A stretch of DNA of 64,000 nucleotides from Syntrophorhabdus sp. PtaB.Bin047 (lineage in GTDB: Bacteria > Desulfobacterota > Syntrophorhabdia > Syntrophorhabdales > Syntrophorhabdaceae): NCBI GenBank assembly GCA_002067235.1, contig MVQP01000003.1, forward strand, positions 1 to 64,000, in the 5' to 3' direction. The notes under the pieces were generated by a model. That model had not been told where the DNA came from. It did not search any database and worked only from the letters and a program-made list of their open reading frames with translations. Made by a program: the position numbers and the translations under genes. Positions 1,370-38,640 of this stretch are shown one piece after another. Each line of letters opens with the position of its first letter. Position 1 is the first letter of the stretch.

Positions 1370-3895
1370 TCAATTCCTCATAAGCGATGTGCAGAGTGCT
1401 TGTGCCAATCGAACCGGCACGGCATTCCCGATCTGCTTGGTTTGTTGAGTCTTGGTTCCCGTGAAGGTGTAGTTCTCGAACGACATCGCCGCCGCCAGCT
1501 CGTGGGGCTGAAGCATCCGGAAGCGGATGTCTATCTGATATTTGCCGGATACCTCGACGAGGCCGAAGCGGTCCTTTGTGGTGATCGTCGGGACCGGATC
1601 ATCTGTGCTGGAAACCCCTTCACCGGCGCCGTAATACTTGATGAGGAAGGGCTCGACGAGAGCGCCGGCGCCATGACTCGTTACTGTGGGCAGGGGTTCA
1701 TTTATGGAGTGGTTTCGGGGCTTCTGTCCCTTGTTTTCTCCGAAGAAGGGGACCAGAAAAGGCTCGACGAGGGATATTGCGCCTGCCGTCGCGATGGTCG
1801 GTACTGGTTGATCCACATCGCGGGGAGCAGAGCAAGACTGTTGGCCGAGGAGAAAAGGTTCAATCAATGCCATTTCCCCGCGGTGGGCCCCGGTTATCGT
1901 AGGGACGGGTCGGTCGATAGAATGGGCCCGGTTCCCGTCGTTGCCTTCGTGGGTTATCGTGACCATAAACGGCTCGCACAGCCCCGTATGGTTCCCCCCG
2001 CCAGTGATCGTTGGCATCGGCCTGTCGACGTCCCTGGCGTCGTTCGTGCCGTAGAGTATGACCAGAAACGGTTTCGCGTTCGCCCCTCCGTACTTCTTCA
2101 ATCCCGCCGCGATCCTTGCGAGCGTTGCCGGTGCAAGGGGGCGCTTTCTCTCGAAGATGCTCTCTCCTTTGATTGTCCAGTCGATGATCTCCCGCGCCGT
2201 CCTGTATGGCTGCAGGCCGTAAAGATTCCCCGGTTCCCCGTGGGTAGGATCGGGCCAGCGGATTGGACGTTTCCCCTTCCTGGCGAGGACGAAAAGCCGC
2301 TGTCTCGTCGTCGGGTCGCCGTAATCGGCAGCGTTCAATACCCGGTCCTCCACGGTATAGCCGAAAGACCTGATCGCGTTGATCCACGCCTGATAGGTCT
2401 CACCCTTTCTGCTTTTCAGGGGTTTGCCTGACGCGCCCACCGGTCCCCAATCCCTGAACTCGCGGACGTTCTCGATGAGCATGTTGTCTACCCTGAGAGA
2501 TTCGAGCCAGCGGAGGACAAGCCATGCTGAGGATCTGAGCTGGTCATTGACGGGCTTGCCTCCGCGGGCTACGGAATGGTGGGTACAATTATGAACTACT
2601 ATCCCATCGGCAATATAGGATTCGTCTTCTTCTACCGACAGGTTGAAGACCTGAACCGATCTTCTACCCGGTTGGATGCGTTTGACCAAAGACCACGAAA
2701 CACCATTGTCAGCGTAGGCAGTTCTCTGCGATGCATTACTTTCCCATTGAACCCGCCATAGATCTCTGACATTCAACTGCCTTCCTTCAATGACCCTGCA
2801 ATGTTGTTTTCGATGATACAGGTTTGCTCGATATCCAAGAGATTCTGCTAAGAGCCTGATGCCGATGGCAAGCCTCTTTGATACTGTGGACGCGAACGTG
2901 ACCCTCTGACCTTTGTGGCCGTCGGCTGAGAGATATCCTTCGAGTAGGGCTTCCCTGTATCCCCTATAGAGCGTTAATGCCCATGCGGGGATAGTCTTGC
3001 CATGCGCAAGCCTGCCGAAGTGCTCCACTAACCAATCCACCAGCCCTTTGTGAGCGCATTCGAACAACCAAGCGGTTCGTGTTCTTCTCTTTCTCCATCT
3101 CAATTCGTCTTTAGCGGCGCGCGTCTTTCCGTTAGGCATCCATGCAGCAAGAATTCTGTCCAACTCATCGACTTCATGATCTCCGGCCACAATGCAAATT
3201 TCGCTACCTTGGCCCTCGCGGATTCGTACAGTTCCATCACCTAACCATCGGCCGATCAACCACCAGAAGTCTCGATTATTGATAGACATGCCCCGTCCAG
3301 GGACTTCTGGAACGCCCCTATGAAACATTGCGTTCGGCGTCGCCCATCTTACTGTTGTAGTGCAGAGCTTCTTTGCCTCTATCCATTCAGGCTCGCCGAA
3401 TGATCGGTCATATTGCCGGATATCGTTATTCCATTTGCGGCTCTGTCGGCGCGCTAAGAACGGATGATTAGACGTTACTTCCAGACCAGGATGTCCCTGA
3501 CCCTTGACAATTAATGTATCTGCCAAGTGGGACATGACTGATGTGACCGGCCGCCACCGGCCCTTGTGAGTAAGAACCACGTCTCCCTTTTTGATATTCT
3601 CGATGGGTATCAGGCCACGTTCGGCCAGGATAAGAGTCCCGGCAGGAAAGCATTCGGGGCTGGCGACGAGGATATTAACCCTTCCTCCCGGTATTTCGTC
3701 CTCGGGCCTGATACTCTCCAGGCGAGCGCAGATGTGACGGGCGCCGGGGTGATTCGCCTGATGTGTCGCAATGGCGACAGGCCAGTGATTGATTGCGAGG
3801 AGGTCTACTTGTTTGCCTATCGTGTGACAGGCGTTATAGAGGCCGGTAGAGGTGCCGCCACAGCCACAAAAAAGATCGACCGCTACAATCGCCAA
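1370..3895 (-). CDS. C5-cytosine DNA methyltransferase interrupted by an intein
   Basis: Phage Dcm-like methyltransferase that would protect phage DNA from restriction. Motif I is DLFCGCGGTSTG. Motif IV, read across the intein, is ASPE|CTHHS. Motif VI is ENVREF, motif VIII TRQRLFV, motif IX FRMLQPHELAAA and motif X IGNAVPVRLAQ. The target-recognition part carries five PxPTIT-like repeats (RPMPTITG, RPVPTITG, QPVPTIAT, EPLPTVTS, DPVPTITT). The intein removes 355 residues, leaving about 486 after splicing. I choose the TTG at 3895, with GGAGGAA 8 nt upstream. An ATG at 3982 is in frame but would run through the small gene 3898-4077 and has no ribosome site. All catalytic motifs are intact. Confidence 0.92.
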   Translation of the reverse strand: MAIVAVDLFCGCGGTSTGLYNACHTIGKQVDLLAINHWPVAIATHQANHPGARHICARLESIRPEDEIPGGRVNILVASPECFPAGTLILAERGLIPIENIKKGDVVLTHKGRWRPVTSVMSHLADTLIVKGQGHPGLEVTSNHPFLARRQSRKWNNDIRQYDRSFGEPEWIEAKKLCTTTVRWATPNAMFHRGVPEVPGRGMSINNRDFWWLIGRWLGDGTVRIREGQGSEICIVAGDHEVDELDRILAAWMPNGKTRAAKDELRWRKRRTRTAWLFECAHKGLVDWLVEHFGRLAHGKTIPAWALTLYRGYREALLEGYLSADGHKGQRVTFASTVSKRLAIGIRLLAESLGYRANLYHRKQHCRVIEGRQLNVRDLWRVQWESNASQRTAYADNGVSWSLVKRIQPGRRSVQVFNLSVEEDESYIADGIVVHNCTHHSVARGGKPVNDQLRSSAWLVLRWLESLRVDNMLIENVREFRDWGPVGASGKPLKSRKGETYQAWINAIRSFGYTVEDRVLNAADYGDPTTRQRLFVLARKGKRPIRWPDPTHGEPGNLYGLQPYRTAREIIDWTIKGESIFERKRPLAPATLARIAAGLKKYGGANAKPFLVILYGTNDARDVDRPMPTITGGGNHTGLCEPFMVTITHEGNDGNRAHSIDRPVPTITGAHRGEMALIEPFLLGQQSCSAPRDVDQPVPTIATAGAISLVEPFLVPFFGENKGQKPRNHSINEPLPTVTSHGAGALVEPFLIKYYGAGEGVSSTDDPVPTITTKDRFGLVEVSGKYQIDIRFRMLQPHELAAAMSFENYTFTGTKTQQTKQIGNAVPVRLAQALCTSLMRN
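2588..3652 (-). other. intein with LAGLIDADG homing endonuclease, inserted at the MTase catalytic Cys
   Basis: A 355-residue in-frame intein. It begins CFPAGTLILAERG (splice Cys1, block A) and has a block B-like SNHPFLARR. Two LAGLIDADG-type motifs are visible: WLIGRWLGDGT and LLEGYLSADG. It ends with block F (VFNLSVEEDESYIADG) and block G IVVHN followed by extein Cys. The penultimate His and terminal Asn needed for splicing are present. The +1 extein residue is the Cys of SPECTHHS, i.e. the methyltransferase's own catalytic nucleophile, so unspliced protein should be inactive. The endonuclease probably targets intein-free alleles of this motif. Confidence 0.95.
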
Positions 3896-3897
3896 GG

Positions 3898-4077
3898 TCA
3901 ATTCCTCCGTCCGTCTGTTATTGCAGGTGGTAATGGATATCTCACCCCCGGCAGCTCCAACATGACAGCCAAAGCAGGGCACAGATAGACCGGAACCGGG
4001 GCAGGATCCTCGATTGGGATATCGTTCGCCTCCAAGAGCCGTTCAAGTCTTTCGATTTCCTCAACGTAGTAATACAT
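3898..4077 (-). CDS. small hypothetical protein (59 aa)
   Basis: A short frame begins MYYYVEEIERLERLL and ends ITDGRRN. An AGAGG sits upstream of the ATG at 4077. It starts 2 nt after the stop of the 109-residue gene. Its stop overlaps the ribosome site/TTG region of the methyltransferase, so the two are translationally coupled. The N-terminal half is a likely amphipathic helix. I do not recognise a family. Its tight packing between two genes is the main reason to believe it, and it sets the true start of the methyltransferase. Confidence 0.65.
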   Translation of the reverse strand: MYYYVEEIERLERLLEANDIPIEDPAPVPVYLCPALAVMLELPGVRYPLPPAITDGRRN

Positions 4078-4421: not shown

Positions 4422-4784
4422 CTATATGCTGTGCGTTCCGCCGTTTGCCACCATCCATTCATCGAGCATTCTCGGAAAGCTCTTGCCTTCCCCGTATGGT
4501 TCATTCTTAACGACCACTATTGGCTTGCCGAGAGAGAAGGCCATGCCCATATCGAAATGTGTCCCCTGGGACCGGCCATTGTAGAAGATGTGAACCTCGT
4601 CGGCCCGTCTGATATTCTCCAAGTTCTGCCGACAAATAGTGATGCCAGGCTTGTTCTGATTGGTGTCGCGCGCTGGTAAATGAACCCTGTGGCCTTGGAT
4701 TTCCAGCTTTCTTGCGTAGGCATTCACGGTATCGAAATAGGGCGCATCGACATTCCTTACCGAACAAATGATGAAGATTCTCAT
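4422..4784 (-). CDS. nucleoside 2-deoxyribosyltransferase-like protein
   Basis: A 120-residue Rossmann-like protein. It opens MRIFIICSVRNVD, a strand and loop typical of the family. It contains RRADEVHIFYNGRSQGTHFDMG and then MAFSLGKPIVVV, matching the family's 'D..I.Y..G..GT..E.G.A.ALGKP' signature. Members exchange or cleave bases on (deoxy)nucleosides. Here it could serve nucleotide salvage or DNA modification. Its ATG overlaps the stop of the radical-SAM gene (ATGA). A second relative lies at 35477-35854. Substrate unknown. Confidence 0.7.
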   Translation of the reverse strand: MRIFIICSVRNVDAPYFDTVNAYARKLEIQGHRVHLPARDTNQNKPGITICRQNLENIRRADEVHIFYNGRSQGTHFDMGMAFSLGKPIVVVKNEPYGEGKSFPRMLDEWMVANGGTHSI

Positions 4785-5646
4785 GCTACCTCCCCAAATA
4801 GACTGCCAGCGACGGCCGTTGGGCCGTAGTGGTATTTCTCAAACGGTATGTGTTCCAGAAACCGGAGTCGGCTGTAATAGCGCGTTACGTCCTCCAGTTC
4901 CTTCTTTGTCCATCCCTTCAGAACATAGGAGTTCTTGGCCATAGCAAATTCGCCCTCGATTGGCTGAAACCTCATGACGTTCGGTCTGATCCCGAGGGAT
5001 CGTATCCATTCCAGTTTCTCTCTTGCCTCTGCCGGCGTGTCGTTGAAACCTACGAGGACATACACTCCGATATCATTGAGACCATGTTCGCGGGCAGTAT
5101 CTATTGCCCTGTGGACTTCGGGCTTGTCTTCCCATGAGTCAAGAGAGAACCGGACCTTTGCGTGTTTGATCTCAGCTATCCGTCTTGCGTGATAGATCTC
5201 GAATCTACCGGCCTCCAAACCTTGGTTGAAGTCAACGAAGGGCAGGGTCTTGAGACGGTCGATGACCCGATTGAAATGGGTAATGCTGGTTGCCAGAAGG
5301 TTATTATCGCAGACTATCGGCCTGACCAGGAAATCCTCGATCTCGATCAAGTCACCTTCTATTCTATGGACGGCGCAGAATTCACAGCGGTTCACGCATC
5401 CACGGCTCGTAAACGTGGCCATGGGATTATGAAAATCCAGGGGCCTGTATGGAAGCTCACCGCCTATCTCAGCGACATCGGCCAAATATTCAGGCATGAG
5501 GTTCACAGCGCCCCCCCCGCGACTACTTTGAGCTTCGACGCTTCGGCTATTTTACGGGCTGTCGGCAAATCCCACGTGAAGACCACAGACAGATAAAGTG
5601 TGTCACCGACCCTCCACCTTGCTATACCTTTGCGCCAGTTATACAT
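4781..5646 (-). pseudogene. radical SAM protein with a frameshift in a G8 tract
   Basis: Two frames together make one radical-SAM protein. The N-terminal frame (5646-5503) begins MYNWRKGIARWRVGDTLYLS and ends KLKVVAGGAL-stop. The C-terminal frame (5506-4781) begins VNLMPEYLADVAEIGG, carries the 4Fe-4S motif CVNRCEFC and then a TIM-barrel-like body. The frames meet at eight consecutive G (C8 on the plus strand, 5511-5518). One extra G would give VVAGGGAVNLMPEYLAD, the expected continuous sequence. The upstream ATG overlaps the stop of the previous gene (ATGTATAA), supporting a 5646 start. Causes could be homopolymer sequencing error, slippage-controlled expression or true decay. Substrate unknown. 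Confidence 0.75.
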
Positions 5647-6349
5647 GTTTGGGATTCTCTCTCTTCCTGAACCCATACCGCCATACCCACGGGTTCGATT
5701 CCCACGGATGTTTCTTGCCGTTGATGGAGTCCCAAAGGGTCCAGAAGGAATGAATCAGGTTGATGTGCTGAGGTAGAAGGGTTACGCCTTCCGCCTTCGC
5801 GTCCTCCTCCGTGATGTCCTGCAACCTCTCAGGTCGCACAGAGATGACCGGGCTCTTAATCCTCCATGCCCATTTTGGCAGGAAAATAGACGGCCTCCAC
5901 TTGCCACAGGCGGGATAACTATCGAGGCTCCATGCTGCCTCGCAAGGAGCAAGAATCTGTTTCTCCCCGATGTAGAAGGCTGCGTTATCGGCACGATAGA
6001 CAATGATCGGGGAACCGTACTCATCACATGTTTCGGCCCATGTCTCCTTGACACACAGGATGTCGCCGGGCTGGTAAGGGGAAGGGTTCTCGTAGGGCGT
6101 TCTGAGCAAGGCTTGAAGGAACTTATTTTCATCAGGATACCGATTGGCGTCCCAATTCTCGCCGCCTACTCCGTTCCTATCCCATGTATGGACGTGACCG
6201 TTAGGAAAGAATGTGGCCCAGGGAAAGTGAACCGTCCCGTTTTGTTCGACGACGGGTTGCGGCTTTATCACCCTTCTCGTCTGTGTCTTCCTTCCTTCAA
6301 TGATCGCGCGAACCATCGGGCCGCTGAACAGTATCGGCTTTTCGGGCAT
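5639..6349 (-). CDS. phage protein with ASCH/PUA-like region
   Basis: A 236-residue protein beginning MPEKPILFSGPMVRAII, followed by EGRKTQTRRVIKPQP. This opening is very common in phage proteins of the ASCH/PUA superfamily, which are thought to bind RNA or modified bases. PYQPGDILCVKETWAE resembles the family's GD(x)L.VRE.W core. GGAGG lies just upstream of the ATG. It is packed between the frameshifted radical-SAM gene and a small Cys protein. Function inferred only by family. Confidence 0.7.
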   Translation of the reverse strand: MPEKPILFSGPMVRAIIEGRKTQTRRVIKPQPVVEQNGTVHFPWATFFPNGHVHTWDRNGVGGENWDANRYPDENKFLQALLRTPYENPSPYQPGDILCVKETWAETCDEYGSPIIVYRADNAAFYIGEKQILAPCEAAWSLDSYPACGKWRPSIFLPKWAWRIKSPVISVRPERLQDITEEDAKAEGVTLLPQHINLIHSFWTLWDSINGKKHPWESNPWVWRYGFRKRENPKHV

Positions 6350-6357
6350 CAGTCCTC

Positions 6358-6591
6358 CTATCTAAACAAAAAGTTGTACGCCTGCCGAAATGCCGTAGCG
6401 AACACGCCTTTGGGTCTCTCAATCGGTTCAAACCACGGGCAATCGTTGTTCTCATTCTGGTCTGTTTGCAGGGCGTAGTGTTTTTCTAGCCGCCACGGGG
6501 TTTTTACTTCACGCAGGCCCTTTGGATTCCTGCAGACTTCGCTAAGCTCGGAATCATATCGACAGTTGATACAGAAGACGTCGTTAGGCAT
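6358..6591 (-). CDS. small Cys-module protein (NNDCPWF type)
   Basis: A 77-residue protein reading VFCINCRYDSELSEVCRN, then NENNDCPWFEPIERPKG. The CxxC, Cys and DCPWF spacing suggests one metal site. The same module occurs twice in the protein at 29407-29970 and in weaker form at 10821-11225. Its ATG overlaps the stop of the PAPS-reductase-like gene. Function unknown; a Zn- or Fe-S-binding adaptor is possible. Confidence 0.7.
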   Translation of the reverse strand: MPNDVFCINCRYDSELSEVCRNPKGLREVKTPWRLEKHYALQTDQNENNDCPWFEPIERPKGVFATAFRQAYNFLFR

Positions 6592-7639
6592 ATTCTCTAT
6601 CCCCCAGTGAGGTGTTAGCGTTTGCCGATCTCAAATCAAACAGCGGCGTGATGTTCACGTCATCCTCCCACGCCACCCCTATGTAGTCGAGGACTCTACC
6701 CCAACCCATCTTATACATCCAGAATTCCCATTCCTTGGGGCTCGTTTCCCTGAGTCGATCAAACCGATGCGGGCGTTTTTCGATGTGGATACCGAAGCCG
6801 CACATGGTACAGCCGGTCCGCTTTGCCTTGGTGGTTTCCAGGGTTCCGTCGCGTTGGGTCTTGATCTCTCCATAGATTTCCGGCACAGGAACATCCAGGT
6901 CGAGAGCCAGTTGAAGCAGGTCGGTCCGTGAGAAGATCGCAAACGGACAGCTCCTCTGAACGGTCTTACCGTAGTAATTGCAGCCGTTCTTCATGAGAGC
7001 TTTTTGCCGTTGCCCACCTTCTGAAGCCATGAGCCCCATGTATGGATGCACCTTGTTGGCCTTTGCCCAATCGTCGGCGGGCTTTTCCTTCATGTGGTAG
7101 CAACAGTCGGGGCTCACCCGGAACGGGGCGGTTTGATAGGTCGTGCCGTATTTATCATTCTCGGGGCCTCCGAAGAGGTCAAGCCATTTCTGCGGTAGCC
7201 TCATGCGTGTTCCCTTTCTCCATCCGCCGTAGGCTCCCGTGTCGCCCGTCATGATCGCGTGTCTCACGGTTGAGTTCTTCTCTGTCGGGTTTTGCAGGAG
7301 CTGTATCTTGCCCGCCTTATCCTTACTGATGACCGGATAGCCGTGATCCTTTATGACCTGGACCTTGGTCTTGTAGGGCTTGAGGATGACCATGTTATCG
7401 AGGGCCTTGTGGACCCGCTGGATGGATTTGTCCTCCAGGCTGGAGAGGGAAACGCCTACTATGTCGGGGCTCACGTACTCTCTGAGGAAGAGAAGAAGCG
7501 TGATGCTATCCAAGCCGCCGACCGAGCAGAATACTTGCCCCTTCATTTGCTCAAAGAACTCCTTGCCGAGCCCCTTGGCATAGGTGATCTTGTACTCGTA
7601 GGGAAGGGCTTGAAGTTCCATAAATGACTTGATGCTCAT
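6584..7639 (-). CDS. PAPS reductase-like (adenine nucleotide alpha-hydrolase) protein
   Basis: A 351-residue protein with the PP-loop SVGGLDSITLLLF (SGGxDS variant). A C-terminal Cys cluster (SPDCCYH, NGCNYYGK, RSCPF, GCTMCGFG) may bind an Fe-S cluster or metal. This is the phage branch of the PAPS reductase/ATP-pyrophosphatase family, whose members activate substrates by adenylation, for example in sulfur chemistry of nucleic acids. The start MSIKSFMELQ at 7639 is chosen because ATGA overlaps the stop of the upstream radical-SAM gene. A longer frame to 7714 lacks this logic. Its exact reaction is not known. Confidence 0.8.
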   Translation of the reverse strand: MSIKSFMELQALPYEYKITYAKGLGKEFFEQMKGQVFCSVGGLDSITLLLFLREYVSPDIVGVSLSSLEDKSIQRVHKALDNMVILKPYKTKVQVIKDHGYPVISKDKAGKIQLLQNPTEKNSTVRHAIMTGDTGAYGGWRKGTRMRLPQKWLDLFGGPENDKYGTTYQTAPFRVSPDCCYHMKEKPADDWAKANKVHPYMGLMASEGGQRQKALMKNGCNYYGKTVQRSCPFAIFSRTDLLQLALDLDVPVPEIYGEIKTQRDGTLETTKAKRTGCTMCGFGIHIEKRPHRFDRLRETSPKEWEFWMYKMGWGRVLDYIGVAWEDDVNITPLFDLRSANANTSLGDREYA

Positions 7640-8334
7640 TTTGTGGTCTTCTCCGCGCGCAGCCTCTCCAGATTGTGCTTTTCCCTGACCTCGATACCGA
7701 GGTCGGTCAACCACCGGATCAGCTCCATAACCTTTTCGATAGGAGGTTCAGGCAGACCATGGCCTTTGCTGTCTGCGCCGATGTTAACAAAATCAGGCTT
7801 CACGTCGTTAATCCATGCGGCAAATTTCAGGACATCGAAGTCCATGATCGGTTCAACTGTGATGAACTTGTGAGCCTGCAGGGCCTTCATAGCCTCGAAT
7901 CTTTCCGTGGGATGTGGGGCAAGACTGATTTCCGGGGGTATGTCCCGGTTGGTTTCGATCGTACAACCGAAGATGCTATTGCCCGGCATGAGTGCGTCCA
8001 TCGTGAGATAGCGCGCCGGATTCTTGGTCTGCCAGACATACTCGTTATCAGGCCACTTGAGGCAGTGGTGAACGACCCTGTTGATAAATTCCTGGGGCAT
8101 CAGCTTTGCAAACAGGTCGTTGCAGTTCTCCTCGAAGATCACTTTGCCGGAACCATACTTGATCTTGAATTCGTTTTCGATGAGCCGCAATGGACCCGTG
8201 TACCTTGGATGCCTGCCGAACCTTGGATTGTCGACGTAGCAGTAAGAGCATTTGTGCGGGCACTCGCCGCCGAGATGAGAATGGGTGTGAGTCACCCATG
8301 GGTACATGTTACCCTGGGATTTCTTAAGTGGCAT
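7636..8334 (-). CDS. radical SAM protein, DUF5131/phage Gp37-like
   Basis: A 232-residue protein with the radical-SAM motif CPHKCSYCYV near residue 25, preceded by WVTHTHSHLGGE and followed by RYTGPLRLIENE. These features match the DUF5131 (phage Gp37/Gp68) family. It would bind a 4Fe-4S cluster and SAM and start radical chemistry. It overlaps the PAPS-reductase-like gene (ATGA) and lies in a run that also has a second radical-SAM gene, which hints at a shared modification pathway. Substrate unknown. Confidence 0.82.
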   Translation of the reverse strand: MPLKKSQGNMYPWVTHTHSHLGGECPHKCSYCYVDNPRFGRHPRYTGPLRLIENEFKIKYGSGKVIFEENCNDLFAKLMPQEFINRVVHHCLKWPDNEYVWQTKNPARYLTMDALMPGNSIFGCTIETNRDIPPEISLAPHPTERFEAMKALQAHKFITVEPIMDFDVLKFAAWINDVKPDFVNIGADSKGHGLPEPPIEKVMELIRWLTDLGIEVREKHNLERLRAEKTTK

Positions 8335-8701
8335 CGCGGGCCTCCTTAAAATAGGGGTCGATCAGAAATTCCTTGAAGGTCAGATCGCTCCATACGTCGC
8401 GTATATCAAGATACTTTTCGTACCTCTTTTGCGCCCTTGTCCTCGTGTCTTTCGGAAGTTGGTCGAAGGCTACCTTCCTACCCGCGTCGGAGACTTGGTA
8501 GTAGACCATATCGGAGTTAACGGGAGAGCTTCCGCTGTTGATCATCAGGCCCTTTTCGACCAGCAACTCCAGGTCCCGGATACCGTCGCTGTCAGAGTAA
8601 ACCGCGTAAAAGTTTCTATACGGCTTGTCGTGCGGTTTCGATATGCCAAGGCTGTGCTGCAGAATGTGGATCTGTTTGGGGGTGAGATCAACCATTGGCA
8701 T
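8324..8701 (-). CDS. hypothetical protein, possible winged-helix
   Basis: A 125-residue protein. The pattern LTPKQIHILQHSLGI, then LVEKGLMI and YYQVSDAGRKVA resembles a winged-helix domain with a wing ending in a 'TxxG' turn. The start may be 8701 or 8695 (ATGGTTGA overlapping the upstream stop). Part of the minus-strand accessory operon. DNA binding is an inference only. Confidence 0.65.
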   Translation of the reverse strand: MPMVDLTPKQIHILQHSLGISKPHDKPYRNFYAVYSDSDGIRDLELLVEKGLMINSGSSPVNSDMVYYQVSDAGRKVAFDQLPKDTRTRAQKRYEKYLDIRDVWSDLTFKEFLIDPYFKEARDAT

Positions 8702-9005
8702 TCTCTATGCCCTCCTCCTCATCGAATACCCCGAGATCCAATAGCCACTTACGGTGTTCCAGGGCCTTTGCGAACATTACTTCCATCCCGGCTCTCTTTT
8801 GGGCTTCGTCAGGGGAAGACGGCGGCGTGAATGACGCCATGGTGAGGTTGGCTACCTTCTCGGGGGTGTAGCCCTCTGTTCCCAGTAACCTGTCCAGTGC
8901 GGCACACGCATCATCGGGCAGGTCTTCATAGATAAATCCGTAGGCCACTTCCGGCGACATGTCTTTGATTCGCTTGTTCTTCTGTCCAATCCAGTCTACT
9001 TGCAT
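8688..9005 (-). CDS. hypothetical protein (105 aa)
   Basis: Acidic protein beginning MQVDWIGQKNKRIKDMSPEV and ending EEEGIENANG. The start at 9005 is chosen because it lies just past the stop of the DUF1643 chimera at 8996-8998. The alternative upstream ATG (9026) would overlap that gene further. No recognised motif. Confidence 0.65.
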   Translation of the reverse strand: MQVDWIGQKNKRIKDMSPEVAYGFIYEDLPDDACAALDRLLGTEGYTPEKVANLTMASFTPPSSPDEAQKRAGMEVMFAKALEHRKWLLDLGVFDEEEGIENANG

Positions 9006-10591
9006 ACATACTCCTTCAAGGTGCAATCCTTCTTGAGATACAGAGGATGCCTGGGAAAGCCTTCTTTCGTTACTCCGAGACAGTAGACCTTACCGAACAT
9101 CTGCAGGACCTGCCTGTCGCGGCCTCGATACCGGCCATGAATGCCCCAAGCCGCTACTACTGTGTGATTCCCGTCAGCATACTTCATGAGATACCTGTCA
9201 TGTTCCAGTCCGCCTGTGGGATCTTCTACCTGTTTCATTTCCGAGGGCAGGGTAGCTCGATACGCAAACAGGTTCAGCATGACCATGCCGCCGAAGCCGA
9301 GGGCCTGCGCGAACCTGATACACCTGCGAACCGTTGGATCATCCCGTTTGGCGTCCGCGGTCGACGGGTTCAGGCCGATAAAGACGAGGCTTTTGCCGCT
9401 GTTGTGATGGACAAAGAAGTCAGACGTAAGGTAGAGGTGGTCCCGATCCAACGTGAAACCGTAAAAATCATCCTCGCCAATAACCTCAACGGTGAACCCC
9501 GTCCTCAAATGGTCCTTCTTTTGCCTCCTTTCGCTTGCCTTCTTTCTGTCCACGCGGCAGGGAATGGTGTCTATGTTGCCAGAAATGCTAAGTCTGGAGA
9601 AGAACCCCCCTGCACCGGTTTGGCATGACTTGAACTGAACCGATTCATTTACCGATAGCCCGAGGCTTCTCGCTATGAAAGCCACGTCAGAAGCGAGAAC
9701 GGACGACTTAGTTACGAAGTCATATCCCCCCTTGCTGTAGTGGCCGTCGGTATCTATCAGACCCGCCAAAAGCTCACGCCTGTTTTCTGCCGAAGCGATC
9801 TTATAAGAGTGGGGGATAAATTTGTGCCCCGCTTTCTGCCCGGCAAGGCCCATCGACCTTATGGCGGTCACAACAGAATTGGGCTGTAATCTGTGCCGTT
9901 TATGGTTTGCCTTGGTGAAGGAAAGAGTTATGGCGTGTGTCTTGCTTTTCGGAGATTCCCTGAGACCCAAACCCCAGGCCTTCGCAAACTCCCTTACGCC
10001 GGAAATAATTTCAGCGTCGGCGCTTGTAATAGCCACGACTCCATTGAGAACCGTTCCGTCGCCGAGAATAACCCCTAAGACCCATGGAGGTACTGGTAGA
10101 TCGTTGATATTGCCGAGAGGCAACAACGGGGCTCTGTGAAGTTTGCGGAGGTGCTTCCAGGACTTCGATTTAGCAATCCAAGATTCCACGGTGATGAACT
10201 GGCGTTCCCCGCCCTTCTGATGAGAGGGACACACGGCCTTCTTGCCTTCATTTGTGCTCACAAGAGAAAGGACGTGGTTCCCGTTCACCACAAAAGGCTT
10301 GCCCCCGCGGCGAGGGGTAATTTGGTACATCATCTCCCGAACGCGACACAGCTCCAAAACACGACGAGCTTCCCCGTCTGGTCCCATGACCAATTCACCG
10401 ACAGTTATGTCCTCGACGTTTTTGACCGTTCCGTCAGCCATGAGGATGCCTGTCCCTTTTGCATGACATCCTGTGGGCAGGACCTCGATGCCGTTGTTCT
10501 TGCCCGGTCCCTTCAGGAACCTGAGAGCTGCATCCACGGCCTTTTGCTGATAGGGGCGCAGGACGTATTTGTCTGAGCCGAAGAGGGTCAT
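8996..10591 (-). CDS. chimera: SF2 helicase N-terminus + intein + DUF1643 domain
   Basis: One continuous 531-residue frame. Residues 1-41 (YVLRPYQQKAVDAALRFL, then IEVLPTG) are the N-terminus and half the Walker A loop of an SF2 helicase. Residues 42-397 are an intein. Residues 398-403 (SGKSLV) complete the P-loop. The sequence then switches to a DUF1643 protein (FIGLNPSTADAKRDDPTVRR, then NLFAYRAT, to the end). All helicase motifs after the P-loop are missing, and so is the usual N-terminal ~30 residues of DUF1643. This suggests an in-frame deletion that fused two neighbouring genes. Splicing should still give a ~175-residue hybrid. Activity of either half is doubtful. Confidence 0.85.
   Translation of the reverse strand: MTLFGSDKYVLRPYQQKAVDAALRFLKGPGKNNGIEVLPTGCHAKGTGILMADGTVKNVEDITVGELVMGPDGEARRVLELCRVREMMYQITPRRGGKPFVVNGNHVLSLVSTNEGKKAVCPSHQKGGERQFITVESWIAKSKSWKHLRKLHRAPLLPLGNINDLPVPPWVLGVILGDGTVLNGVVAITSADAEIISGVREFAKAWGLGLRESPKSKTHAITLSFTKANHKRHRLQPNSVVTAIRSMGLAGQKAGHKFIPHSYKIASAENRRELLAGLIDTDGHYSKGGYDFVTKSSVLASDVAFIARSLGLSVNESVQFKSCQTGAGGFFSRLSISGNIDTIPCRVDRKKASERRQKKDHLRTGFTVEVIGEDDFYGFTLDRDHLYLTSDFFVHHNSGKSLVFIGLNPSTADAKRDDPTVRRCIRFAQALGFGGMVMLNLFAYRATLPSEMKQVEDPTGGLEHDRYLMKYADGNHTVVAAWGIHGRYRGRDRQVLQMFGKVYCLGVTKEGFPRHPLYLKKDCTLKEYVCK
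9401..10468 (-). other. intein with LAGLIDADG endonuclease in a helicase P-loop
   Basis: A 356-residue intein between PTG and SGKS, a well-known intein insertion point in P-loop proteins. Block A is CHAKGTGILMADGTVKNVED and block B is NGNHVLSL. LAGLIDADG motifs are VLGVILGDGT and LLAGLIDTDG. Block F is DDFYGFTLDRDHLYLTSD, and the C-terminal junction is FFVHHN|S, with penultimate His, terminal Asn and +1 Ser. All splicing residues are present. It persists although most of the host helicase gene is gone. Confidence 0.95.
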
Positions 10592-10824
10592 GGGAATGCG
10601 AACCCCATGAGCTTCCCATCCTTGTGCTTCAGCTCTGTCAGATCGTTCTCCGAGTCGTAATAGAGCAACCGCTGACCTTCCTTGAGCGTTCCGGCCCGTG
10701 AGAGTTCTTCAACCACATCCTCAGCCGCGTTTGTGATAGTCATGTACTCATCCCAGGGGCCAAGGTCTCCGAGCGTGAGCGCTTCGGGCGTGTTGTCTAC
10801 GATTGCATAGTTGGCATGTCTCAC
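10588..10824 (-). CDS. hypothetical protein (78 aa)
   Basis: Acidic small protein: RHANYAIVDNTPEALTLGDL at the N-terminus, then an amphipathic region with NAAEDVVEELSRAG. The start is a GTG at 10824 overlapping the stop of the previous gene (GTGA). Its stop overlaps the ATG of the helicase chimera. The coupling on both sides supports it. No family recognised. Confidence 0.7.
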   Translation of the reverse strand: MRHANYAIVDNTPEALTLGDLGPWDEYMTITNAAEDVVEELSRAGTLKEGQRLLYYDSENDLTELKHKDGKLMGFAFP

Positions 10825-11225
10825 GGCTTGTCTCCTTTGGGCAGTTCGATCACGATGCCCCGGCAATACTTCTCGCCGTCTTCCATGATATCGAAGGTGG
10901 CGTGAGGTATGTTGGTTCTGAAAACCCATGCGTAACCGTCCGTGTCCCACTTGGCGCTAACCGGGTCCGTGATGCTTTCAGCGAGCTTCTTGAAGTAGGG
11001 GCAATCATCTTGTTCGCATTGGTTTTGAACAAGACCATTGGAATCGAAGAAGAGGTCCAGGTCATACCTCTCATCATTCACGGCTCCTCTAAGTTCAACG
11101 ACGTCATCGGAATAGCCGAAGATAACGACTAGGCCAGCGGCCTTTGCCTCGGCTTCCTCTTCGGGTGTAATCTCTTTCAGATATTCCCTACCGTTAAGTC
11201 TTGCTGCCAGTTCTTCTTTGGTCAT
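10821..11225 (-). CDS. phage hypothetical protein with DCPYF motif
   Basis: A 134-residue protein beginning MTKEELAARLNGREYLKEIT, a start shared by many phage hypothetical proteins. A middle NQCEQDDCPYFKKLAES is a shorter relative of the NNDCPWF module seen at 6358 and 29407. AAAAGGAG precedes the ATG. Function unknown. Confidence 0.75.
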   Translation of the reverse strand: MTKEELAARLNGREYLKEITPEEEAEAKAAGLVVIFGYSDDVVELRGAVNDERYDLDLFFDSNGLVQNQCEQDDCPYFKKLAESITDPVSAKWDTDGYAWVFRTNIPHATFDIMEDGEKYCRGIVIELPKGDKP

Positions 11226-35854: not shown

Positions 35855-36930
35855 ATTGTCTCCGAGAATAGGGGTATTTGCTGGCCCGTACCGTTCTGGG
35901 CCTTCTCGATGTTCGAAAGGGCCATGCGGTGGTAGGATTCTTTCAGCTCGAAGCCGATGGCGTTCCGGCCTTGCTCCACTGCGACGTAGGCAACGCTTCC
36001 GATACCCATAAAGGGGTCCAGAACCGTATTGCCTGGGTTGGTATAGAGCTTTATGCAGCGACGAATCACTTCGAGCTGGAGAGGACACACATGCTTTTCT
36101 TCGTCGTTTTCTCTTGCGCACTTATAGCCGTCCAGGGTGTCGATCTCCAAGATATCGGTCCAACAGCCGTGAGCCCACTTTATCCAGTCTTCCTTCGTAA
36201 ACCAGCCGTCCGGGTTTATACCTTCACCGCCAGTCACGGTCCGGGTGACTGTGGCCCCCAGCCGTTCATCAAAGGACACAATCCGGTAAGGGATGATCTG
36301 ATAATCCTTCTTGACTCGTTTGATGTTGCCGTGGTCAATGTAGTTGATGATCGGAGACGGTTCGACAAGCATGATCTCCTTTTGTGTCTCAATGATCCCG
36401 TGGACCCTTCCGGCCGGGTCTGCATCTCCGGCAGGTTTGCGGAAGAACAGAACGTAATCGTTCATTGCTGGGGACAGGGATCTTGCGTCGCGCGCCCCGG
36501 TTACGAACATCAGTGAGTGTAGGTTATTGCGCTTGGCTATGTTTCGGGGGTTCTTGACTATGGCCACTTCACCGTGCGGAAAGAAACCGTGGTTCTGTGC
36601 CATGGTGATTACTGCACCGCGGAAGTCGCGCATGCCCATAAAACCGTGCTGCACCTTGTAAGTCAAAAGCTGTTGGACATGACAGCAAAAGATGCTTCCG
36701 GGCTTCAATACCCTGAATAGCTGTTCAAAGGCATACCGGATATGAACCGAGAACTGGCAGGCCATGAGGTTATCGGAATCCTGGCAGTTGCCGATATCTT
36801 CGGTCTTGTGGCTGTAGCTGAAGAGGGCTGCAAACGGGATTGACGTGATGCAGCAGTCTACCGAATTGTCCGGTAGAAAATCGGCCATTCCCTGTACGCA
36901 GTCACGGTTCCAGATCTGAACATCAGACAT
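35851..36930 (-). CDS. N4/N6 amino-DNA methyltransferase (beta-type)
   Basis: A 359-residue protein with motif order IV-then-I. DCCITSIPFAALFSYS is the motif IV site, with SIPF where SPPY/DPPY is usual. NTVLDPFMGIGSVAYVAVEQ is the SAM-binding FxGxG. GRNAIGFELKESYHRMA follows. It would methylate adenine or cytosine-N4 in phage DNA. Coupled to a helicase gene, as in restriction-like or anti-restriction pairs. Confidence 0.82.
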   Translation of the reverse strand: MSDVQIWNRDCVQGMADFLPDNSVDCCITSIPFAALFSYSHKTEDIGNCQDSDNLMACQFSVHIRYAFEQLFRVLKPGSIFCCHVQQLLTYKVQHGFMGMRDFRGAVITMAQNHGFFPHGEVAIVKNPRNIAKRNNLHSLMFVTGARDARSLSPAMNDYVLFFRKPAGDADPAGRVHGIIETQKEIMLVEPSPIINYIDHGNIKRVKKDYQIIPYRIVSFDERLGATVTRTVTGGEGINPDGWFTKEDWIKWAHGCWTDILEIDTLDGYKCARENDEEKHVCPLQLEVIRRCIKLYTNPGNTVLDPFMGIGSVAYVAVEQGRNAIGFELKESYHRMALSNIEKAQNGTGQQIPLFSETI

Positions 36931-38530
36931 TGAGTACCCCTTTCATCGCTTCGATATATGCGGCTTCCTGCATCGCTATCCCTTGCAGGAACTTTTCTTG
37001 CTTTGCCTTCACGTTGTCCCAGACCACACCTTCCAGCTCGGGGATGTAGGGGATGTGGACCTTGACCTGTTTCGTCTGACCATAGCGAACGGCGCGCCGG
37101 ATGCTCTGATAGTGCTGCTCAAAACTGTCCGAAAATCCCGAATAGACCATGCTTCCGCACATCTGGAAGTTCAGGCCGAAGCCAAGGAGAGACGCTTTTG
37201 AGATCAGCACGTCGGTCTTGCCCGATCTGAACCGTTCGATGATCTCCAACCGGTCCGCTTCCTTTGTCTTGCCCGTAAGGGTTTCAACGGTAAACGTCTC
37301 GTTCTGTAGTTGTTCCGCTATGATGCTTGATTCTTCATCGAAGATGGTCCAGACGAGGACCTGCAGTTCGTGATGAATAACGTCCCGTCTTACCAGGTCG
37401 GCAACGAACGCAGGCTTAAGGCTCGGTATCTTTGTCGTGCCTTCTTTTGAGTAGACAAAGCCTTTGGCGACCTCGGACAGCTCGATCCTCCTGGGCATGG
37501 TCAGCTTCGTGCGGTCAATGAAGAGTTGAGCCCGTTTGGACCGATCATCACCGTTCAGGACGAATGATCTTTGCTCCGCGGTCATCTCAATTCTGTACTC
37601 TTCGATCAACGGATCCGGCAGATCCTTGAGATGATCCTGAAACCCGTAGTTCTTGGGGTCGTTCAGATAGATTGACCATCCCGCCATGAACCGGTAGAAA
37701 GCGGCCTCTGCGTGTTGCTTGACCTTCCAGTTGCCGTCCCTGTCGCGCTTGAAGAAGGTCCACAGGATCTCGCCTTCGTCGCGGAGCTTTTCAAGGAAAG
37801 AGCCTTGCGATGCGTATTCCATCGTGTCATTAGGCGCCGGCGTGGCCGTGCAGGCCAGCTTGTACTCGATGCCCCTGCAGGACTTTATCAGTGCCCATTT
37901 GATCTTGCCGCCGCCCGCCTTCAGAAGACTTGCTTCATCGAGCACAACGCCGGCGCAATGCCGGATCTCCGATATGACCTCCGGTTGCTCTTTCCGGGGG
38001 ATGAACTTCTCGGGGTTGACTATGCCGGTTGTCGGCTTTCCATCCGTGCACCATGCTTTAAGGCTCTCTCGGGTCTCGATCTGTTCAATGGCCATTTCAT
38101 CCCCGTAGAACCTCCGGGCCATGTCGATTGTCTGCCTGATGATGTTCAGGGGAACGATAAGCAGAACCTTGCCGCCTGTTCTATGAGAGACCTGGCGCGC
38201 CCATTCCAGATACATCGGGGTCTTGCCACTCCCGGTGTAGCTCCATATGGCGTAGCGTTTGACTCTGAGGGCCTGCGAAACAATGAACCGCTGGTAGTCA
38301 AGGAGATATTCGGACAAAGGGAGCCAACCATGGTCTTCCGTTGCTGCTTGGACCCCAAGGATGTGAGCGAACCGGGCCGAACAGGAGATCCTGTACGTGT
38401 CGGATCGCCAGTCGTATGCGAGTTGGAACTCGGGGAGCTTCTTCGTCTTCAGAAACAGGTAGTACTCGTCAAGGGTCCACCGGTTGAAGTTCATGCTGAT
38501 GGTGTCATTTTGAATCTGGACGGCCTGCAT
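36923..38530 (-). CDS. SF2 helicase (SNF2/DEAD-like)
   Basis: A 535-residue helicase. LLDYQRFIVSQALRVKRYAI; Walker A SYTGSGKTPMY; motif II VVLDEASLL; motif III ACTATPAPN; C-terminal QSIRRAVRYGQTKQ (motif VI). Intact, unlike the helicase remnant at 8996. The start MQAVQIQNDT at 38530 overlaps the stop of a tiny membrane gene (TGATG). It may supply helicase function for recombination or cooperate with the adjoining methyltransferase. Confidence 0.85.
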   Translation of the reverse strand: MQAVQIQNDTISMNFNRWTLDEYYLFLKTKKLPEFQLAYDWRSDTYRISCSARFAHILGVQAATEDHGWLPLSEYLLDYQRFIVSQALRVKRYAIWSYTGSGKTPMYLEWARQVSHRTGGKVLLIVPLNIIRQTIDMARRFYGDEMAIEQIETRESLKAWCTDGKPTTGIVNPEKFIPRKEQPEVISEIRHCAGVVLDEASLLKAGGGKIKWALIKSCRGIEYKLACTATPAPNDTMEYASQGSFLEKLRDEGEILWTFFKRDRDGNWKVKQHAEAAFYRFMAGWSIYLNDPKNYGFQDHLKDLPDPLIEEYRIEMTAEQRSFVLNGDDRSKRAQLFIDRTKLTMPRRIELSEVAKGFVYSKEGTTKIPSLKPAFVADLVRRDVIHHELQVLVWTIFDEESSIIAEQLQNETFTVETLTGKTKEADRLEIIERFRSGKTDVLISKASLLGFGLNFQMCGSMVYSGFSDSFEQHYQSIRRAVRYGQTKQVKVHIPYIPELEGVVWDNVKAKQEKFLQGIAMQEAAYIEAMKGVLNV

Positions 38531-38640
38531 CAGAAGCCTTGTCCTGCGCGAATGAGGTAGCCCACGGCGATTCCCAGAACGAGGCTTACCAGACCTACAA
38601 TCCACAGGTTTGAACCAATCAGTTTCGACAGCCTTTCCAT
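38530..38640 (-). CDS. small membrane peptide (36 aa)
   Basis: MERLSKLIGSNLWIVGLVSL, VLGIAVGYLIRAGQ: a single membrane helix. GGAGG lies 4 nt upstream of the ATG. Stop overlaps the helicase ATG. Too short for most gene callers. Function unknown. Confidence 0.6.
   Translation of the reverse strand: MERLSKLIGSNLWIVGLVSLVLGIAVGYLIRAGQGF

What the first reader, a model, noticed from the sequence alone, without database searches (positions are those of the whole stretch)
9376..9410. Helicase P-loop fused in frame to DUF1643 right after an intein
SGKSLV then FIGLNPSTADA: the helicase is lost after Walker A while DUF1643 lost its N-terminus. The intein remains intact in a gene that is no longer a helicase.
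Basis: seen in the sequence. Interest (0 to 1): 0.75.

Follow-up and report, generated by a model that had tools for sequence, protein, structure and literature searches.

The report
Intein homing that destroyed its helicase
In a bacterial prophage, a selfish protein-splicing element (an intein) sits in a helicase gene whose remaining 90% has been deleted and fused in frame to the next gene; a sister phage still carries both genes whole and intein-free, so this looks like a natural record of intein insertion going wrong.

Summary
Window 8996-10591 (minus) is one 531-aa ORF: 41 residues of an SF2 helicase up to Walker A (PTG), an intein with all splicing and LAGLIDADG motifs (42-397), four more helicase residues (SGKS), then DUF1643 from LV/FIGLNPSTADA.

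The origin is resolved by a sister phage contig (IMG/VR 3300022177_000062; terminase 98% identical). There the same operon holds an intact, intein-free 391-aa helicase directly followed (TAG|ATG) by an intact 159-aa DUF1643 gene, with the same neighbours. The window therefore carries an intein inserted exactly at PTG|SGKS plus a 1,128-bp deletion that begins 12-18 bp past the intein. It removes 344 helicase codons and the first 29 DUF1643 codons.

Synonymous differences to the sister jump next to the intein (1 of 33 codons, then 7 of 8; permutation P < 5e-5), as expected of exon co-conversion. I infer one-sided, illegitimate repair of the intein endonuclease's break, as known experimentally for the T4 td intron. 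An independent later deletion, or import of an already fused allele, remains possible.

The DUF1643 body is not decaying, but it lacks its conserved N-terminal hairpin. No other fused case was found. An assembly artefact is unlikely.

The parts
10469..10591 (-). Helicase N-terminal remnant, codons 1-41 (MTLFGSDKYVLRPYQQ...GIEVLPTG); start codon overlaps the stop of the upstream gene (ATGA)
   Evidence: 97.6% aa identical to codons 1-41 of the intact sister helicase; 62% to an intact intein-free helicase in a same-genus genome; ATGA overlap
10469..10492 (-). Probable exon co-conversion tract, codons 34-41: 7 of 8 third positions differ from the sister, against 1 of 33 before it
9401..10468 (-). 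Intein, 356 residues (CHAKG...FFVHHN) with two LAGLIDADG endonuclease motifs (GDG at 177-179, DTDG at 280-283)
   Evidence: Pfam; motifs A, B, F, G intact; invariant residues shared with phage helicase inteins; intein confidently modelled; absent from the sister
9389..9400 (-). SGKS: first four helicase C-exon codons left after the intein
   Evidence: alignment with intact helicases
9383..9388 (-). CTCGTC (LV): junction; identical to CTCGTC in the sister DUF1643 gene, TTGGTC in the sister helicase
8996..9382 (-). DUF1643 body (codons 404-531 and stop), N-terminal hairpin missing
   Evidence: Pfam E 2.8e-37; 92.2% aa identical to the sister DUF1643, dN/dS 0.13; conserved columns
8688..9005 (-). 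Downstream gene whose ATG overlaps the 3' end of the fusion; operon partner conserved in the sister
10588..10824 (-). Upstream 78-aa gene, translationally coupled to the fusion, conserved in the sister
10821..11225 (-). Upstream 134-aa gene, conserved in the sister

Best explanation
The fused ORF is the product of a failed or one-sided intein homing event in a phage operon that ran helicase > DUF1643. The intein's LAGLIDADG endonuclease cut an intein-free helicase at PTG|SGKS. The upstream end was repaired by homology to an intein-bearing helicase, copying about 24 bp of donor exon and the intein. After 12-18 bp of downstream exon the copy was joined not to the helicase but, in frame, to a short match (CTCGTC) in the DUF1643 gene 1.1 kb downstream. 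This deleted 344 helicase codons and the first 29 DUF1643 codons. Shown: the intein insertion, the exact deletion relative to the sister, and the divergence step next to the intein. Inferred: that break repair, rather than a separate deletion, caused it, and that the intein still splices, giving a 175-aa chimera (41 + 134 residues). The chimera probably has no helicase activity and a doubtful DUF1643 activity. Loss of the helicase is probably tolerated because the phage has a second helicase (36923-38605) and is carried as a prophage.
For: Sister contig with both genes intact, intein-free and adjacent in the same operon; the deletion is 1,128 bp and starts right behind the intein, a place that takes up under 1% of the helicase-plus-intein length. 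Synonymous divergence rises from 1/33 to 7/8 codons at the intein boundary (permutation P 0 of 20,000) and 9/12 codons across the site differ against a 21% baseline (P 9e-5). Intein and endonuclease motifs are intact. All other helicase-type inteins examined whose C-exteins could be read continue into a P-loop ATPase or other full host protein. The same outcome, one-sided homing with microhomology junctions and long resection, is described for phage T4 (PMC2988022, citing Parker, Belisle and Belfort 1999), and intein endonuclease cuts without flanking homology led to deletions in Haloferax (PMC10643990).
Against: The donor is not known; the nearest inteins found are about 48% identical. A 6-bp match is short, and whether the donor helicase read CTCGTC there is unknown. 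The divergence step could reflect recombination in the sister lineage instead. The first 23 DUF1643 codons also look more diverged (10/23 against 14/107, P 0.026), which fits import of an already fused allele better than a join made in place. Cleavage and splicing were not assayed.
Confidence: 0.62

Rival explanations
1. The intein was fixed normally in an intact helicase, and an unrelated deletion between the helicase and DUF1643 came later. In-frame, intein-sparing deletions survived because an unspliced or frame-shifted product would be worse, or by chance.
For: Spontaneous deletions at short matches are common in phages; the operon order and the in-frame join need nothing more. Helicase loss is plausible with a second helicase present.
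Against: The deletion endpoint would have to fall within 18 bp of the intein, under 1% of the available 2.2 kb. No relative with the intein in an intact helicase of this operon was found.
Confidence: 0.2
2. The fused allele arose in another phage and was imported whole by homing, using the helicase N-exon as left arm and DUF1643 as right arm, so the fusion itself is mobile and deletes the helicase wherever it lands.
For: Raised synonymous divergence on both sides of the junction: codons 34-41 of the helicase (7/8) and the first 23 codons on the DUF1643 side (10/23 against 14/107). The endonuclease motifs are intact.
Against: The right-hand signal is weak (P 0.026). No second fused allele was found in viral contigs with two degenerate junction patterns (the three matches include no fused gene), nor in 46 class-level and 395 phylum-level genomes.
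Confidence: 0.13
3. Assembly artefact: reads of an intein-bearing helicase and of a DUF1643 gene were wrongly joined.
For: The genome is a fragmented assembly of 269 contigs and no reads were available.
Against: No repeat of 15 bases or more near the junction, so an assembler had nothing to slip on; no N; both flanks syntenic with the sister at 78-88% over the neighbouring blocks; the helicase remainder is found nowhere else in the genome; the join is in frame and the stop/start overlaps are kept at both ends.
Confidence: 0.04
4. Domestication: the fusion is a working gene. Splicing joins the helicase N-terminus to DUF1643, and the 41-residue helicase piece replaces the missing N-terminal element.
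For: dN/dS of the DUF1643 body is 0.13, like its neighbours (0.12-0.20); at most differing sites the window carries the commoner residue, with one window-specific change of a usual proline; operon coupling intact.
Against: The lost element (YRYxLxR) was present in all 80 relatives and holds two invariant residues; most of the measured divergence may predate the fusion; the helicase piece is poorly ordered in the model.
Confidence: 0.15

Closest known systems
One-sided (illegitimate) homing of the T4 td group I intron (Parker, Belisle and Belfort 1999, as reviewed in PMC2988022)
   Same: Mobile element inserted exactly at its site on one side, junction at a short match and long loss of sequence on the other, exon co-conversion.
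   Different: There a laboratory cross with an intron; here a natural intein in a prophage, joining two neighbouring genes in frame.
P-loop helicase inteins of phages (for example Klebsiella phage YX3973, Listonella phage phiHSIC)
   Same: Same insertion site PTG|SGK, 35-48% identical inteins, Hint plus LAGLIDADG.
   Different: Their C-extein is a full helicase; here it is DUF1643.
Arthrobacter FB24 Arth_1007 intein (PMC3196547)
   Same: An intein stranded in a gene that is no longer a helicase, thought to come from a phage.
   Different: Arth_1007 has lost catalytic residues and does not splice; here all motifs are intact and the C-extein is a recognisable second gene.
DUF1643 (PF07799) phage proteins
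   Same: Body conserved, 35 of 36 conserved positions after the junction kept.
   Different: N-terminal hairpin with YRYxLxR missing.

Membership tests
Class 1 LAGLIDADG intein at the helicase P-loop site | Nucleophile at position 1, block B His, C-terminal HN and Ser/Thr/Cys at +1 | tested here: met
   C42, H106, H396-N397, S398; invariant in the alignment
Class 1 LAGLIDADG intein at the helicase P-loop site | Two LAGLIDADG motifs with acidic residues | tested here: met
   D178 and D282; Hom_end and LAGLIDADG_3
Class 1 LAGLIDADG intein at the helicase P-loop site | Splicing and site-specific cleavage activity | not testable with these tools
   needs expression and cleavage assays
SF2 helicase | Motifs II (DExH), III and VI downstream of Walker A | tested here: not met
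   No helicase family in the ORF; sequence after SGKS is DUF1643; remainder absent from the genome
DUF1643 (PF07799) | Conserved core FxxLNPSTAD...DDPTxRRC...HPLY | tested here: met
   E 2.8e-37; 35 of 36 conserved columns
DUF1643 (PF07799) | N-terminal hairpin with YRYxLxR | tested here: not met
   7 of 7 conserved columns missing; motif present in 80 of 80 relatives; strands 13-19 and 25-32 of the model of an intact relative
One-sided illegitimate homing product | Element inserted precisely on one side, deletion starting beside the site on the other | tested here: met
   PTG|C exact; deletion begins 12-18 bp after the intein
One-sided illegitimate homing product | Junction at a short match | tested here: inconclusive
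   CTCGTC in DUF1643, donor helicase unknown, TTGGTC in the sister helicase
One-sided illegitimate homing product | Co-conversion of flanking exon | tested here: met
   Divergence step at codon 33/34, P < 5e-5; direction of transfer not proven

The most novel reading that the evidence does not exclude
The fused allele is itself a mobile element: with the helicase N-exon as left arm and DUF1643 as right arm, the intein's endonuclease would cut intact intein-free helicases in co-infecting phages and convert them to the fusion, so a natural homing element spreads by deleting most of its host gene.
Probability: 0.13. Interest if true: 0.78.

Novelty: new variant of a known kind. Interest (0 to 1): 0.52.

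Why it matters
Inteins are thought to persist in essential conserved sites because only exact removal is tolerated. Here the host gene was destroyed while the intein survived with all motifs intact, and the sister phage supplies an intein-free form of the same locus base by base. That makes it a natural case of repair gone wrong during intein homing, a process known mainly from laboratory crosses, and a way an intein can acquire a new host gene. If the fusion spreads by itself, it would be a natural counterpart of a gene-deleting drive, and testable in a phage cross.

Tried and rejected
Helicase remainder elsewhere in the genome: not found; the other helicase of the prophage (36923-38605) is a different, complete protein. 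Trans-splicing with a second half: no second half was found and the intein is complete. Stand-alone translation of DUF1643 from a start inside the intein: no ATG, GTG or TTG in frame was seen just before it when the sequence was read. Recurrent fusion in other phages: none in 33 intein loci, 80 DUF1643 loci or two junction-pattern scans (the three matches include no fused gene). Helicase near DUF1643 in other phages: only three of the 80 viral DUF1643 loci have a helicase-like ORF within reach. Fold of DUF1643: confident model (pLDDT 93) but no PDB match with E <= 0.001, best TM-score about 0.4, so its function stays unknown. DUF1643 sequence against PDB: nothing. First genome-contig scan found nothing; A1 was too divergent for a scan.

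Full report
What is there. On the minus strand, 8996-10591 is one open frame of 531 codons. Codons 1-41 are the start of an SF2 helicase up to PTG of Walker A. Codons 42-397 are an intein with Hint and LAGLIDADG domains, codons 398-401 are SGKS, and from codon 404 the protein is DUF1643 (Pfam E 2.8e-37, profile positions 10-134). There is no stop, frameshift or N. The start codon overlaps the stop of the upstream gene as ATGA, and the ATG of the downstream gene lies inside the end of the fusion, so both ends sit in a normal coupled operon.

Where it is. The window is the first 64 kb of contig C3 (78,335 bases) of a 3.6-Mb, 269-contig genome assembly. It holds an integrase at 113-1180, terminase and structural genes, and beyond about 69 kb ordinary bacterial genes such as a glycogen phosphorylase: an integrated prophage.

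Is the junction more than chance? In 80 viral DUF1643 proteins an N-terminal element with YRYxLxR is always present. The window lacks all 7 conserved columns before the junction and keeps 35 of 36 after it. An AlphaFold model of an intact relative (pLDDT 93) places the missing element in two strands (13-19 and 25-32) before the first core strand (39-44), which carries the FIGLNPS-like motif. In 33 intein loci of related type whose C-exteins could be examined, the sequence after the intein continues as a P-loop ATPase or another full host protein, except one cut by a contig end; none continues as DUF1643. No fused case was found by two degenerate junction scans of 2.9 million viral contigs: the first gave nothing, and none of the three matches of the second is a fused gene.

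The unfused form. A search with the downstream and the upstream neighbour proteins hit one common contig, IMG/VR 3300022177_000062. Its terminase is 98% identical to that of the window's prophage, and about 55 kb of the contig align at a mean of 88%. There the order is: upstream gene, 78-aa gene, an intact 391-aa helicase without intein (PTGSGKSLVIANL), stop TAG directly followed by ATG of an intact 159-aa DUF1643 (YRYDLWRRW...NILVFVGLNPSTADA), then the same downstream gene. Relative to this, the window has a 1,068-bp intein at PTG|SGKS and lacks 1,128 bp between the SGKS codons of the helicase and the LV codons of DUF1643. This removes 344 helicase codons and 29 DUF1643 codons. A same-genus bacterial genome carries another intact intein-free helicase of this kind.

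Mechanism. The deletion starts 12-18 bp behind the intein, a position that takes up under 1% of the helicase-plus-intein length. The divergence from the sister changes sharply at the intein. In the helicase piece, third positions differ in 1 of the first 33 codons and in 7 of the last 8 (maximum chi-square, 0 of 20,000 permutations). Including SGKS, 9 of 12 codons around the site differ against a baseline of 21% (P 9e-5). This is what co-conversion of a short exon tract from a diverged intein donor would leave. One-sided repair of homing breaks, with microhomology junctions and long resection on the side without homology, is documented for the T4 td intron (PMC2988022), and intein endonuclease cuts in Haloferax without flanking homology ended in deletions (PMC10643990). 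I therefore take aberrant homing as the likeliest cause. The CTCGTC at the junction equals the sister DUF1643 sequence; the sister helicase has TTGGTC, and the donor is unknown, so the match length is open.

What does not fit fully. The first 23 codons on the DUF1643 side also differ more than the rest (10/23 against 14/107, P 0.026). A join made in place predicts background divergence there; an imported, already fused allele predicts a raised tract on both sides. This is the basis of the more novel reading. The signal is weak, and recombination could have happened in the sister instead.

Fate of the protein. The intein keeps Cys1, the block B His, two LAGLIDADG aspartates, His-Asn and Ser+1 and is confidently modelled in the precursor. 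It probably still splices; the product would have 175 residues. The DUF1643 body shows dN/dS 0.13 against the sister, like its neighbours (0.12-0.20), and at most differing sites the window has the commoner residue. So it is not visibly decaying, although most of this divergence may predate the fusion. Without the N-terminal hairpin, DUF1643 activity is doubtful. Helicase activity is excluded by the missing motifs. The sister also has DNA aligning with the window's second helicase (36923-38605), so loss of one may be tolerated.

Artefact. Reads were not available. An assembly join is unlikely: no repeat of 15 or more bases near the junction, the sequence is single-copy, neighbours on both sides are conserved, and the lost helicase part is nowhere in the genome.

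Verdict. Real, explained to the base by a sister phage, and a new variant of a known kind: a natural, in-frame product of aberrant intein homing.

Noticed in passing
1370-3982 (-): A second intein (355 aa, LAGLIDADG) sits at the catalytic motif of a C-5 cytosine methyltransferase (SPE|CTHHS). The sister phage has this gene without the intein (L187 10524-11864). Here both exons are complete, and divergence does not rise at the intein.
   Followed up: partly
4438-8681: This stretch (radical SAM protein, PAPS-reductase-like protein, DUF5131 protein) has no DNA match in the sister, which carries different genes of partly similar type (for example L187 6476-7279 and 8330-9493): a module swap.
   Followed up: no
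36923-38605 (-): A complete second DEAD/Helicase_C helicase; the sister has matching DNA at 86%.
   Followed up: partly
G000 C3 about 69150-78335 (L011 9155-18336): Right prophage boundary: similarity to the sister stops near 69,154 and bacterial genes follow (glycogen phosphorylase, oxidoreductase, CheV-like protein); the left end is cut by the contig start at the integrase.
   Followed up: partly
L041 4887-5405 (DUF1643 model): DUF1643 is predicted with high confidence as an alpha/beta domain without a significant match in the PDB; its function is unknown although it is common in phages.
   Followed up: partly
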